Below, piece by piece: positions 37,973 to 41,197 of a DNA stretch of 41,197 bases. The notes beneath the pieces were generated by a model. It was not told the DNA's origin. It did no database searches and worked only from the letters and a program-made list of their open reading frames with translations. Numbering within the stretch: the stretch's first letter is position 1; the number at the start of each line of letters is the position of its first letter. The stretch spans positions 1 through 41,197 of the forward strand of contig JAPKCC010000016.1 of assembly GCA_028823105.1 (NCBI GenBank). Direction: 5' to 3'. This stretch comes from Phycisphaerales bacterium. GTDB lineage: Bacteria > Planctomycetota > Phycisphaerae > Phycisphaerales > SM1A02. The position numbers were made by a program, and so were the translations under genes.

Positions 37973-38893
37973 ATGATCGTTTCCGATGAAAAGCCCATCG
38001 AGGGTGACCAGCAGAATCCAGTAGAGACTTCGGCGAACGACATGCCGGAGAAAGCCGACGTGTCGACCAAGCCGACCAAGCCGACGAAGTCGACGAAGTC
38101 GACGGCGACGAAGCCGGAGGTCAAGAAGCCCGAGGTCAAGAAGCGCACGCTCGCTTCTGGCCGCGAGGCGACGACGATCGTCGGTGGTCCGACGCTTGAG
38201 AACTTCGGCGGCGTCGCCACCCATCGCATCGTCAACGAGGCCCCTGATCGCCCGGCGACGGAATCAGGCGACAGCACGGACAGCGGTGAAGAGGTCCAAG
38301 GCGAATTCGATCCCGCGTCCGACCTGCCGATGTACCGACCCGGTTTCGACTGGTTCGTGCTGCGTGTCGCGAGCAACAAGGAATCGGGCGTTCGAGAGAC
38401 GCTGCTTCGCAAGGTCCAGATCGAAGGCATGGAGCATCTCGTCGGCCGAATCATGGTGCCGACCGAGAAGACCCAGTCGATCAAGGGCGGCGTGAGTCGC
38501 GTCTCTGAGACCAAGCTCTATCCCGGCTATGTGTTCGTCGAGATGTCGCTGGAATCCGACGGTCGAATCCCGCAGGACGTGTTCTTCCTCATCAAGGAGA
38601 CCACGGGCGTCGGTGATTTCGTCGGCACGGCCGGACGACCCACGCCGATGGCGGGCCACGAAGTCGAGAAAATGCTTTTCGACTCCCGGAAGCCCGACGA
38701 AGCACCGCAGGTCAAGATGGAATTCCAGCCCGGCGATCCGGTCACGATCAAGGAAGGCCCCTTCGAGAACTACGAAGGAACGGTCGACGAGGTCATGCCC
38801 GACAAGGGACTGGTTCGCATCCTGGTCACGATCTTTGGTCGCCAGGCTCCGATCGAACTCGAATACTGGCAGATCGCCAAGGCGGACGAATAG
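37973..38893 (+). CDS. nusG: Transcription antitermination factor NusG with long N-terminal extension
   Basis: 306 residues; GAGGTG precedes the ATG. The E. coli protein has 181. The NGN domain starts at about 124 (DWFVLRVASNKESGVRETLL), with KLYPGYVFVEM and a loop GVGDFVGTAGRPTPM. The KOW domain is at about 250-280 (FQPGDPVTIKEGPFENYEGT). Before the NGN domain lies an extension of about 120 residues of low complexity: Lys/Thr/Ser/Pro repeats, then an acidic Asp/Glu stretch. NusG binds the RNA polymerase clamp and links it to Rho or ribosomal S10. The extension may modify those contacts (inference). rplK, which normally follows, is absent. Confidence 0.96.
   Translation: MIVSDEKPIEGDQQNPVETSANDMPEKADVSTKPTKPTKSTKSTATKPEVKKPEVKKRTLASGREATTIVGGPTLENFGGVATHRIVNEAPDRPATESGDSTDSGEEVQGEFDPASDLPMYRPGFDWFVLRVASNKESGVRETLLRKVQIEGMEHLVGRIMVPTEKTQSIKGGVSRVSETKLYPGYVFVEMSLESDGRIPQDVFFLIKETTGVGDFVGTAGRPTPMAGHEVEKMLFDSRKPDEAPQVKMEFQPGDPVTIKEGPFENYEGTVDEVMPDKGLVRILVTIFGRQAPIELEYWQIAKADE
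38066..38146 (+). repeat. 9-bp and 15-bp tandem repeats in the nusG extension
   Basis: Four 9-bp units (ACCAAGCCG twice, ACGAAGTCG twice; 38066-38101) encode TKP, TKP, TKS, TKS. Two 15-bp units (38117-38131 and 38132-38146) encode EVKKP and EVKKR. Confidence 0.85.
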
Positions 38894-38940
38894 GTCGGAA
38901 GCGACGGGTTGTTTCCCTCGCCTCTCTTGAATCGATGCCG

Positions 38941-38963
38941 CCCGAGAGGCGTCTCTCGACGGG
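38941..38963. other. Hairpin after nusG
   Basis: CGAGAG/CTCTCG stem with a GCGT loop, extended by CC/GG pairs across a two-base bulge, 48 bases after the nusG stop. No T-tract follows, so if it ends transcription it would need Rho. Confidence 0.45.
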
Positions 38964-38987
38964 TGGCCCTTGGGCCTTCGGGAGCTC

Positions 38988-39017
38988 TTGGGGGAGGATG
39001 ATCCTCGCCGGTACACT
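38988..39017 (+). promoter_or_regulatory. Promoter with a palindrome in its spacer, before the lipoprotein gene
   Basis: TTGGGG (38988-38993), 18-base spacer, TACACT (39012-39017). The spacer holds GAGGATGATCCTC (38994-39006), a perfect 13-base palindrome with a central G, which is a candidate operator. Confidence 0.45.
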
Positions 39018-39043
39018 GGTGGCGCCTTCAGGGAGGCCTCTTC

Positions 39044-39850
39044 ATGCACAACACGCTTCACAGATTCCTCTGCCCCGTCCTCTTCCTCGCCCTCGGATTG
39101 TCGAGCGTCGGGTGCACGCCGCACGCCACATTCCCTTCCGACGGCGGCACCGAGTTTCTGGCTCCCGGGATGTATCCCGCCCCGCAGTTGATGGGCATGG
39201 GACTCAAGGCCACCTATGAGAAGACGGTTGGGGATCTTTCTCTGGTTCCCGCATCGGTCGAAGGTGAAGCAGCGGCCCTGCCGGCATTGGTGTACGCGCT
39301 CCCCGAAGGCGTCAGTAGTGGCGATTGGAAGCAGGTCGGAATCCAGACCGACATCGACAGTGCACGCGAAGCCACGCGGGCTGATGTCACGAATGGCACG
39401 CCGATCTGGGCGGTGAAACAACTTCGAATTCGTTCCAACCGAGCGGAAGTGGACGTCGTCTATCCGAGCGGTGGCGATCTGTACCAACTGGCGACCGTGA
39501 TCTTCAAGTCCGAGCCGTTCAGGCCGTTCAAGTTCGAGGCGTTCCAGCGTTGGTTGATTCCTGAAGACGCACCCGTCTGCCATCATCCCGTTGAAGTCGC
39601 GAATGCGAAGGCTGAAGCTGAAGCCGAGGCTGCTCGCAAGGCTGCGGAAGCGAAAGCGACCGCGGACGCTGAAGCCGAGGCTGCTCGCAAGGCCGCGGAA
39701 GCGAAAGCGACCGCGGATGCTGAAGCCGAGGCTGCCCGCAAGGCTGCGGAAGCGAAAGCGACCGCGGATGCTGAAGCCGAGGCTGCTCGCAAGGCCGCGG
39801 AAGAGAAAGCCACTGCAGATGCGGAAGCCGAAACCTCGGCCGCGGAATAA
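39044..39850 (+). CDS. Lipoprotein with repeated Ala/Glu/Lys helical tail, function unknown
   Basis: 268 residues; GGGAGG shortly before the ATG. Signal peptide and lipobox LSSVGC place Cys24 as the lipid-bearing residue. Residues 25-185 form a globular domain I do not recognise (start TPHATFPSDGG, strands IWAVKQLRIRSNRAEVDVVY). From about residue 190 the chain is a continuous charged helix of 17-residue repeats, AEAEAARKAAEAKATAD. This resembles the helical spacer of TolA and similar cell-envelope proteins and probably spans part of the periplasm. It lies where rplK would be expected, with its own promoter. Confidence 0.85.
   Translation: MHNTLHRFLCPVLFLALGLSSVGCTPHATFPSDGGTEFLAPGMYPAPQLMGMGLKATYEKTVGDLSLVPASVEGEAAALPALVYALPEGVSSGDWKQVGIQTDIDSAREATRADVTNGTPIWAVKQLRIRSNRAEVDVVYPSGGDLYQLATVIFKSEPFRPFKFEAFQRWLIPEDAPVCHHPVEVANAKAEAEAEAARKAAEAKATADAEAEAARKAAEAKATADAEAEAARKAAEAKATADAEAEAARKAAEEKATADAEAETSAAE
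39617..39833 (+). repeat. 51-bp tandem repeat, four copies plus a partial
   Basis: Copies begin at 39617, 39668, 39719 and 39770, with a degenerate fifth at 39821. Copies differ at a few third-codon positions, so the array is not brand new. Confidence 0.93.
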
Positions 39851-39940
39851 TCCCCGTCGTTCTCATGACGGCATCTTCCGCCGAGACATGGGAATCCGAT
39901 GACCAAGGCCGGTCGAATTCAGCAGGACCCGTCACATCAA

Positions 39941-39956
39941 TTCATGGATTCATGGA
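39941..39956. repeat. 8-bp direct repeat TTCATGGA, two copies
   Basis: Two adjacent perfect copies, with a third partial match (TTCGACGG) following, in the gap between the lipoprotein gene and ubiX. Confidence 0.6.
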
Positions 39957-39981
39957 TTCGACGGTAAGACCGCTCGGACAC

Positions 39982-40014
39982 CCCGTGTTCGGGTTCCCTG
40001 AGCACGGGTGCTCA
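39982..40014. other. Long imperfect hairpin upstream of ubiX
   Basis: CACCCCGTG pairs with CACGGGTG (one bulge), continued by TCGGG/CCTGA around a TTC loop. No T-tract follows. It may be the end of the lipoprotein message. Confidence 0.4.
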
Positions 40015-40032
40015 TCGAGGAACTGATCGACG

Positions 40033-40692
40033 ATGAATGACTCCACGAATCCTCCGTCTGGAAATAATGCTCCCGCTTCGAAGACACCACGTCGCATCAT
40101 CGTGGGAATTACCGGAGCGAGCGGCGCGTGCTACGCGGTTCGGGTGATCGAACTCCTCGCCGCGTGTGGAATCGAGACGCACATCGCGTGTTCCAGCCTC
40201 GGGAGACGACTTCTGGCCGAAGAGATGGGAATCACCCAGTTGGATCCGGATGCCCTGAGCGGGGGTCTTGGTGAACGACTCGTGATTCATCCGGGGAACG
40301 ACGTCGGGGCGGCCTGCGCCAGCGGCTCGTTCAAGCACGATGGAATGATTGTGGTTCCCGCGTCGAGCAATACGCTGGCGAAGATCGCGTACGGCATCAG
40401 CGATAACTTGGTGCAGCGAGCGGCCCAGGTGACGCTCAAGGAGCGTCGTCCATTGGTGATCGCTCATCGGGAGTCCCCGATCGGCATGGCGGAGATCGAA
40501 GCCATGCGGAAAGCCACACAGGCTGGAGCGATCGTGGCGCCGCTTTCCCCAGGTTTCTACCTCGAGCCGAACTCGATACAGGATCTCGTGGACTTCATGG
40601 CTGGCCGCCTTCTCGACCTCGTGGGGGTTGATCATGGCCTGCAGATCAGGTGGGACAAGCACCTCGAGTCGCGTCGTGTTCGTCCGGAGTGA
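40033..40692 (+). CDS. ubiX: Flavin prenyltransferase UbiX
   Basis: 219 residues, slightly longer than typical because of a 20-residue Ser/Asn/Pro N-terminus before RRIIVGITGASGACYAVRVI, the FMN-binding start. VVPASSNTLAKIAYGISDNL and LKERRPLVIAHRESP are the family's most conserved segments. UbiX joins dimethylallyl phosphate to reduced FMN to make the prenylated cofactor for UbiD decarboxylases. In this phylum that would most likely serve quinone synthesis. No ubiD lies in the window. Confidence 0.95.
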   Translation: MNDSTNPPSGNNAPASKTPRRIIVGITGASGACYAVRVIELLAACGIETHIACSSLGRRLLAEEMGITQLDPDALSGGLGERLVIHPGNDVGAACASGSFKHDGMIVVPASSNTLAKIAYGISDNLVQRAAQVTLKERRPLVIAHRESPIGMAEIEAMRKATQAGAIVAPLSPGFYLEPNSIQDLVDFMAGRLLDLVGVDHGLQIRWDKHLESRRVRPE

Positions 40693-41035
40693 AGCGTCCG
40701 GATAACGGCTGGATGATTCCTAGAATTTGAATAATTGTGACAGACTCACTTGCCCCTCGGCGGTCTGGTGTCACATTCCCAGAGTCCTGATTTTAGTTCG
40801 GGTGGCTCTTGAGACACCACGTAATTTCAGGGACGACATTTGGGAACGTAGAGGGAAAGGGACTCCACTACGACATCCTGAAGAGTTTTTCGCTCAGGCA
40901 TTGTGCACGATGCACTCTTGATGCTTGGCGATATCTGGCGAGGTTATCCCTCGTTGTGACGCTGTTCCAATGGTCTCCTCCGGGAAACTCGTTGGTGTCA
41001 CGATGAGTACGAGGGAAGAAGATTCCCTCTGCCCC
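40693..41035 (+). ncRNA. Candidate structured RNA ending at a strong terminator
   Basis: No believable protein is encoded here. Inverted repeats are dense. Hairpin A pairs TTGTGACAGAC (40735-40745) with GTCTGGTGTCAC (40763-40774). Hairpin B pairs CCCTCGTTGTGAC (40948-40960) with GTCACG and ACGAGGG (40999-41002 and 41009-41015) across a bulge. Hairpin C is GAGGGAA/TTCCCTC (41011-41029). A and B share the same end motifs (TTGTGAC and TGGTGTCAC). B and C compete for the same GAGGG. The segment leads straight into an intrinsic terminator. The 5' end is unknown; an AT-rich stretch at 40721-40736 could hold a -10. It could also be a long ubiX 3' untranslated region. Confidence 0.45.
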
Positions 41036-41082
41036 GGCCGCTCTGATCATGAGCAATCTTGATCAGGGCGGCCTCTTTTTTT
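41036..41082 (+). terminator. Very strong intrinsic terminator
   Basis: 14-bp stem (41036-41049 with 41060-41073, one G-T pair) containing TGATCA on both sides, a 10-base loop, then TCTTTTTTT. It is the strongest terminator in the window and points rightward. Confidence 0.93.
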
Positions 41083-41197
41083 GCGCTGCGGGGGCGGCTG
41101 CGCCTCCTCCTCGCTTTCTTGAATCGTTGCCCTCCTTCCTCGTGCGCTGCGGGGGCGGCTGCGCCTCCTCCTCGCTTTCTTGAATCGTTGCCCTCCT
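41082..41197. repeat. 61-bp tandem repeat, cut by the window end
   Basis: The segment beginning TGCGCTGCGGGGGCGGCTG at 41082 recurs identically at 41143, and the second copy is cut at 41197. The array therefore has at least 1.9 copies and may continue. A tandem array at a sequence end is what breaks short-read assemblies. Confidence 0.93.

What the first reader, a model, noticed from the sequence alone, without database searches (positions are those of the whole stretch)
40693..41082. Possible new structured RNA with duplicated hairpin motif and competing stems
Seen: two hairpins sharing the end motifs TTGTGAC and TGGTGTCAC (40735-40774 and 40954-41001). A 13-bp bulged stem (CCCTCGTTGTGAC) shares the segment GAGGG with an alternative perfect hairpin GAGGGAA/TTCCCTC. 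The strongest terminator in the window follows directly. No protein frame is convincing. Mutually exclusive stems before a terminator are typical of regulatory RNAs. I see no signature of RNase P RNA, tmRNA or SRP RNA; 6S RNA cannot be excluded by eye.
Basis: partly seen in the sequence, partly recalled or inferred. Interest (0 to 1): 0.65.

Follow-up and report, generated by a model that had tools for sequence, protein, structure and literature searches.

The report
Conserved small RNA gene after ubiX
Right after the ubiX gene, two related groups of uncultured planctomycete bacteria carry a conserved, folded RNA of about 300 bases that matches no catalogued RNA family and looks like an independent small regulatory RNA gene; what it regulates is not known.

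Summary
Homologs lie directly after ubiX in 8 genomes: 5 of the window's genus, 3 of a second genus. A covariance model finds these 8 among 181 family genomes and among 400 order genomes; 12 weak family hits look like chance. No Rfam family matches.

ubiX four-fold sites are saturated (0 of 63 invariant), while the RNA keeps a 15-base block identical in 8 of 8. Helix B (40950-41007) and the terminator covary.

It overlaps a conserved promoter-like box, TTGCCC-16 nt-extended -10, which recurs in a ninth, held-out genome. The RNA thus probably runs from about 40784 to 41082. The 'mutually exclusive' stems can coexist.

Best reading: an independently transcribed regulatory RNA, in genomes without detectable Hfq, sharing the ubiX terminator. 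Function is inferred only; target pairing through UUCCCUCUGCCCC and CsrA binding remain open. It matches neither 6S nor RNase P, tmRNA or SRP models. New RNA family, known kind.

The parts
40033..40692 (+). ubiX, UbiX-family flavin prenyltransferase; the conserved upstream neighbour
   Evidence: NCBIfam NF004685 195.2 bits over cut-off 188, TIGR00421 170 bits over 108.9; next to the RNA in 8 of 8 genomes
40749..40777 (+). Promoter-like box: TTGCCC (40750-40755), 16-nt spacer, extended -10 TG (40769-40770) and CACATT (40772-40777)
   Evidence: 7 of 29 columns invariant in 8 homologs against 0 of 84 flanking columns when anchored on TTG; the same 7 columns are invariant in an unanchored MAFFT alignment; strict box in 8 of 9 homologs including held-out L012, once in the window, 0 in 220,498 background bases. 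The stock sigma-70 scan does not call it
40784..41082 (+). Proposed small RNA, about 299 nt; start inferred from the -10 box (plus or minus about 3 nt), end from the terminator
   Evidence: Start inferred; covariance-model match to its core at 40836-41081, 219.2 bits (the window is one of the 8 sequences the model was built from). Model R2, built without the window, gives 57.8 bits
40847..40872 (+). Hairpin A, CGUAG-AGGGAAAGGGACUCCA-CUACG, with a conserved purine-rich loop
   Evidence: GUAG/CUAC in the genus becomes GUCG/CGAC (or GUCG/CGGC) in the second genus: one of four pairs changed on both sides (strands typed from the loci)
40950..41007 (+). Hairpin B, closing helix CUCGUUGUGAC / GUCACGAUGAG (11 bp)
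   Evidence: 82 of 88 cells paired in hand-registered rows; of 40320 permutations of the 3' strands 2 reach this, the true one included; 2 of 11 pairs with change on both sides in the genus alone
41011..41029 (+). Hairpin C, GAGGGAA-GAAGA-UUCCCUC
   Evidence: 92.9% of cells paired on the MAFFT alignment, which does not allow for one extra loop base in the second genus; no pair with change on both sides because the 3' arm is invariant
41022..41036 (+). Invariant block AUUCCCUCUGCCCCG; candidate interaction strand
   Evidence: 15 of 15 bases identical in 8 of 8 homologs of two genera
41036..41082 (+). Intrinsic terminator: 14-bp stem, 10-nt loop, U-tract
   Evidence: 3 of 14 pairs with change on both sides; strongest in the window in my scan

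Best explanation
The segment holds an independent small-RNA gene. Transcription starts near 40784 from an extended -10 promoter whose -35 element begins 58 nt after the ubiX stop, and ends at the intrinsic terminator near 41082, which ubiX read-through transcripts would share. The roughly 300-nt RNA folds into hairpins in series: a variable 5' domain, hairpin A with a purine-rich loop, hairpin B, hairpin C and the terminator. Most likely it works in trans as a regulatory RNA without Hfq: the invariant 3' strand UUCCCUCUGCCCC would pair with purine-rich (ribosome-binding-site-like) stretches of target mRNAs once hairpin C opens. Shown: conservation, place after ubiX, structure, terminator, promoter-like box, no Hfq detected. 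Inferred: transcription start, promoter activity, action in trans, the interaction strand and its targets.
For: Homologs after ubiX in 8 genomes of two genera. Model R2, built only from the three second-genus sequences, finds the RNA in all 5 genus genomes as their one match at E<=0.1 (E 8.7e-13 to 1.2e-16). ubiX four-fold sites near saturation (pairwise identity 0.30-0.62, random 0.32; 0 of 63 columns invariant) against RNA-core identity 0.71-0.87 within the genus and a 15-nt invariant block. Covariation in helix B, the terminator and one pair of hairpin A. Conserved promoter-like box, including a held-out ninth genome. Little coding signal: upstream in-frame stops in 4 of 8, no start in the second genus at the place where the genus has ATG, and the stretch between hairpins A and C changes length by numbers not divisible by 3. 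Hfq in 0 of 11 genomes while 5 of 14 control genomes ring.
Against: No expression data. The promoter box is weak by E. coli standards: the sigma-70 scan finds none. UUCCC is buried in hairpin C in 8 of 8 folds; GCCCC is mostly paired in 5 of 8, partly in the window, and open in 2. The exact 12-mer complement of the strand occurs nowhere else in the window's genome, so any trans targets would use shorter or imperfect pairing. Only 8 sequences; the helix B rows of the second genus were registered by hand for pairability, and within the genus alone 23 to 200 of 500 shuffles reach the observed values, depending on the measure, leaving out the uninformative count of pair types. Four of 8 sequences are open upstream in the block's frame.
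Confidence: 0.6

Rival explanations
1. It is a structured 3' untranslated region of ubiX with no transcript of its own: the fold protects the mRNA end or binds a protein that sets ubiX mRNA stability.
For: Directly after ubiX in 8 of 8 genomes. No terminator between the ubiX stop at 40692 and the box at 40749 is listed or among the eight best. The two genus members in which no ubiX was found (G001, G007) also show no RNA, though gaps in the assemblies could explain this.
Against: A constant-length box with the promoter signature lies between ubiX and the RNA in 9 genomes (8 of 9 by the strict pattern), while its distance from ubiX varies.
Confidence: 0.22
2. It is a CsrA-binding (titrating) RNA: GGA motifs in hairpin A and in the 5' arm of hairpin C sequester CsrA.
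For: CsrA in 11 of 11 genomes, two copies in 8 of these, and no Hfq detected. ANGGA occurs 4, 4, 4, 4 and 3 times in the five genus members against 0.8-0.9 expected from base composition and 1.2-1.6 from dinucleotide shuffles.
Against: In the second genus ANGGA is at background (1, 2 and 1), and plain GGA is not above dinucleotide shuffles in 7 of 8 sequences. Most ANGGA of the genus lie in one purine-rich block that may be conserved for another reason. The invariant pyrimidine strand is unexplained by this.
Confidence: 0.1
3. It is a divergent member of a housekeeping RNA family, 6S above all.
For: No 6S hit at E<=0.001 in any of 8 genomes of this genus, while 15 of the 61 genomes searched have one, 4 of them over the family's cut-off, so the genus's own 6S is unaccounted for.
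Against: No 6S match at E up to 10 in 40400-41197, nor at E up to 1 in seven homologous loci. Hairpins in series with a terminator at the 3' end do not make the closed rod of 6S (recalled). RNase P RNA sits elsewhere in the genome (260.6 bits).
Confidence: 0.03
4. It encodes a small protein or a leader peptide (MSTREEDSLCPGR... in the window's genus).
For: The ATG and the following frame are kept in 5 of 5 genus members, and 4 of 8 sequences have no stop upstream in that frame.
Against: No ATG at that place in 3 of 3 second-genus members; third codon positions of the block are as invariant as the others; a G to A change just after the block turns Gly into Asp; upstream stops in 4 of 8; no ribosome-binding site seen by eye before the ATG in the window.
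Confidence: 0.03

Closest known systems
EsrE, small RNA at the 3' end of ubiJ (yigP locus), Escherichia coli (PMC5581919, abstract and outline seen)
   Same: By its abstract: a small RNA in the 3' UTR of a ubiquinone-pathway gene, an independent transcript from an internal promoter, acting on several mRNAs.
   Different: Neighbour is ubiJ, not ubiX; no sequence relation was tested; EsrE's promoter is inside the locus, here the box lies after the stop codon.
3'-end-derived and gene-adjacent small RNAs in general (review PMC9438474, four passages seen)
   Same: Some, such as MicX, have their own promoter (passage seen); sharing the gene's terminator is recalled.
   Different: The well-studied cases are largely Hfq-bound RNAs of enterobacteria and Vibrio (recalled); here no Hfq gene was found.
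CsrB/RsmZ-type CsrA-titrating RNAs (recalled)
   Same: Several ANGGA motifs in a structured RNA in the window's genus; CsrA present.
   Different: Motif enrichment is absent in the second genus.
Rhodopirellula-1 candidate RNA (PMC2864571, one table row seen)
   Same: A candidate structured RNA listed for Proteobacteria and Planctomycetes.
   Different: Its sequence was not seen and could not be compared; the row shows no Rfam accession, so the Rfam scans may not cover it.

Membership tests
Independent intergenic small RNA (kind) | Own promoter | tested here: inconclusive
   Promoter-like box at 40749-40777 conserved in 9 genomes; stock scan negative; no transcript data
Independent intergenic small RNA (kind) | Rho-independent terminator | tested here: met
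   41036-41082, covarying stem
Independent intergenic small RNA (kind) | Conserved structure, not coding | tested here: met
Independent intergenic small RNA (kind) | Discrete transcript | not testable with these tools
   needs RNA-seq
6S RNA (RF00013) | Match to the family model | tested here: not met
   no 6S hit at E up to 10 in 40400-41197; no hit at E<=0.001 in 8 genus genomes
RNase P RNA (RF00010) | Match to the family model | tested here: not met
   no hit here; the gene is at G000:C25:6137-6549
tmRNA and SRP RNA (Rfam) | Match to the family model | tested here: not met
   all 4227 Rfam families scanned; the only gathering-level hits in the window are two tRNAs, and three unrelated sub-threshold hits in 40400-41197
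CsrA-titrating RNA | Repeated ANGGA motifs conserved across homologs | tested here: not met
   above expectation in 5 of 5 genus members, at background in 3 of 3 of the second genus
CsrA-titrating RNA | CsrA binding | not testable with these tools
   csrA genes present in 11 of 11 genomes
Hfq-dependent small RNA | Hfq in the genome | tested here: not met
   0 of 11 genomes at E<=0.001, 5 of 14 controls positive

The most novel reading that the evidence does not exclude
A new regulatory RNA family restricted to two planctomycete genera and linked to ubiX, working without Hfq. An invariant 15-nt, mostly pyrimidine strand held in hairpin C is released to act on mRNAs, or is read by a dedicated RNA-binding protein (one of the CsrA paralogs for the purine-rich parts), tying flavin or quinone-type cofactor supply to other pathways, as EsrE does next to ubiJ in E. 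coli.
Probability: 0.15. Interest if true: 0.65.

Novelty: new member of a known kind. Interest (0 to 1): 0.42.

Why it matters
Few small RNA families are catalogued for the planctomycete supergroup: a table in a 2022 survey lists 8 for the whole PVC group against 345 for Proteobacteria (PMC9029176, passages seen). A conserved, covarying RNA with a candidate start box and a terminator, in bacteria without detectable Hfq, gives a concrete gene on which to test how such bacteria use small RNAs. It is lineage-restricted, so it does not change general understanding by itself.

Tried and rejected
Rfam: no family at gathering score in the segment; three unrelated sub-threshold hits at E 4-9 in 40400-41197; one sub-threshold hit in seven homologous loci, flavi_FSE in L015:2201-2275 (21.8 bits against a gathering score of 43, E 0.52), which overlaps the 5' domain of that RNA; taken as chance.

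Wider homologs: model R1 gives 12 further weak hits in 181 family genomes (E 4.4e-4 to 0.74; stricter filters, so weak homologs can be lost). R2 gives 5 other weak hits (G190, G159, G055, G168, G152; E 0.008-0.06), which I did not read. The DNA search of 101 genomes also lists many chance-level matches up to E 1 (60 of 101 genomes have some match).

Downstream of ubiX: the ubiX search hit 94 of 181 genomes, and only the best 30 loci were fetched and read. RNA motifs appear in 8, none in 22, of which two stretches are under 160 nt (L012, L034). Sixteen of those without motifs were printed; they hold other sequence there.

Competing-stem switch: rejected as the main reading. Duplicated hairpin: rejected. 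Coding: rejected, though 4 of 8 sequences are open upstream. Perfect 12-mer complement of the invariant strand: in G000 only the RNA's own antisense; in the 8 genomes one further site, G133:C29, not followed. RNAalifold's long-range GGGGC/GCCCC pairing is broken in the window itself; not adopted.

Literature: search listings (library of open papers only); no paper on an RNA after ubiX in planctomycetes was seen in these listings, which is no proof that none exists. Passages or an abstract were seen of PMC2864571, PMC9438474, PMC9029176 and PMC5581919; no paper was read whole.

Full report
What is there. Of the 8 named loci that carry the RNA, 6 are labelled Phycisphaera, Phycisphaerae or Phycisphaerales, one Planctomycetaceae and one Hyphomonas. 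ubiX ends at 40692. The 390 nt after it end in the strongest intrinsic terminator of the window by my scan.

Conservation. A DNA search of 101 genomes finds the segment strongly in the window's genome and 4 others of its genus, and its 3' end in one genome of another genus (G044, E 3.6e-5); everything below that is at or near chance level (best 0.00127). These six lie directly after ubiX. A ubiX search over 181 family genomes hit 94; the best 30 loci were fetched, and the downstream motifs appear in 8: five of the genus (G000, G003, G004, G005, G006) and three of genus g38 (G044, G133, G134). In a sixth genus member with ubiX (G002, L012) the locus ends 125 nt after the ubiX match. In the other two (G001, G007) neither ubiX nor the RNA was found; G007 is given as 97% complete. 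The covariance model R1 (225 positions, from all 8) hits 8 of 181 family genomes at 144 bits or more, with 12 weak hits treated as chance, and 8 of 400 order genomes, drawn from a larger group, at E<=0.01. R2, built from the three g38 sequences alone, recovers the five genus RNAs (57.8-71.9 bits), which guards against circularity.

Selection. In ubiX the four-fold degenerate sites are near saturation: pairwise identity 0.30-0.62 over 28 pairs against 0.32 at random, and 0 of 63 columns invariant across the eight. The RNA core is 0.71-0.87 identical within the genus and 0.45-0.56 between genera on a MAFFT alignment, and AUUCCCUCUGCCCCG is identical in 8 of 8.

Structure. Helix B (CUCGUUGUGAC/GUCACGAUGAG) pairs in 82 of 88 cells; of the 40320 permutations of the 3' strands only 2, the true one included, do as well. 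The rows of g38 were placed by hand where they pair, which favours the result. Within the genus alone, on a MAFFT alignment without that choice, 96.4% of cells pair and 2 of 11 pairs change on both sides; 23 of 500 shuffles reach that percentage and 200 of 500 that number of pairs, and slid versions pair in 26-69% of cells. Hairpin C plus terminator: 95.8% of cells paired (0 of 500 shuffles), 6 cells with change on both sides (0 of 500), 3 pairs with such a change (72 of 500). All double changes there are in the terminator. Hairpin A: one of four pairs changes A-U to C-G between genera. Folding is more stable than shuffles in 8 of 8, much of this from the terminator.

In register it forms 9 of 9 pairs in the window and 3 to 7 of 9 in the homologs. 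The same stretch holds a box of conserved columns: TTG, then G.CA...T at fixed distance, 7 invariant columns of 29 against 0 of 84 in the flanks when anchored on TTG, and the same 7 among 13 invariant columns of an unanchored alignment. Read as TTGCCC - 16 nt - TGt CACATT this is a -35 and an extended -10 element (consensus recalled). The strict pattern occurs once in the window, in 8 of 9 homologs (L016 departs by one base), including L012, which was not used to define it, and 0 times in 220,498 background bases. The stock promoter scan does not call it.

Competing stems. The longer stem CCCUCGU/ACGAGGG would take GAGGG from hairpin C, but the 11-bp helix B uses GAUGAG instead, so B and C can coexist. 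UUCCC is paired with the hairpin C arm at 0.68-0.98 probability in 8 of 8 and with the hairpin A loop at 0-0.30. No switch is needed to explain the sequence. In the genus the bases of the longer stem do not vary, so it is not excluded there.

Not coding, not a known family. In the frame of the invariant block there are stops upstream in 4 of 8 sequences (L009, L011, L015, L016) and none in the other 4; there is no start in g38 at the place where the genus has ATG. The distance from hairpin A to the invariant block, as matched, is 174, 153, 157, 150, 151, 137, 149 and 145 nt, so no frame is kept through it. Rfam gives no family. RNase P RNA lies elsewhere. 6S was not found in any of the 8 genus genomes although 15 of 61 genomes searched have a hit, 4 over the cut-off; the genus's 6S remains unlocated, but the segment does not match the 6S model.

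How it may work. CsrA is in 11 of 11 genomes and Hfq in 0 of 11. ANGGA is above expectation in the genus and not in g38, so a CsrA sponge is possible but not favoured. The invariant pyrimidine strand suggests a constraint beyond hairpin C, since the 5' arm of C varies while the 3' arm does not. Base pairing to purine-rich mRNA sites is my inference; the exact 12-nt complement exists nowhere else in the window's genome, and the strand is largely paired in most folds. EsrE, next to E. coli ubiJ, is a functional precedent for a small RNA at the 3' end of a quinone-pathway gene (PMC5581919, abstract).

Verdict. A real, lineage-restricted structured RNA that matches no catalogued family, most likely an independent small RNA of about 300 nt; function unproven.

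Noticed in passing
window 41082-41197: A perfect 61-bp tandem repeat (1.9 copies) runs into the contig end; an 87% identical copy lies at the start of contig C113 of the same genome (24-130), so the assembly may have broken in a repeat array just after the RNA. Similar sequence follows the terminator in G006.
   Followed up: partly
window 39599-39831: The gene before ubiX (39044-39850) has a 51-bp tandem repeat, 4.6 copies, coding an alanine-rich charged repeat; no Pfam or NCBIfam match. By eye a relative precedes ubiX in the 5 RNA-bearing loci (L002-L006).
   Followed up: partly
L006:1654-3075 (-), also in L002 and L003: A secreted-looking protein with a dockerin-like tail (by eye) lies convergent to the RNA in three genomes; no Pfam match for the L006 copy.
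   Followed up: no
genomes G000-G007: No 6S RNA was found in any of the 8 genus members, while some relatives have it; either lost or too diverged for the model.
   Followed up: no
L060 (G029:C9:167627-167848): Weak R1 hit (16.3 bits) with a sigma-70-like promoter (by eye), a GGGAAGGGA stretch and a T-run; lacks the invariant block; may be chance.
   Followed up: partly
window 38893-40033: After nusG the usual rplK does not appear in the ORF list; the repeat-bearing gene and ubiX follow instead (gene names recalled from the translations, not tested).
   Followed up: no
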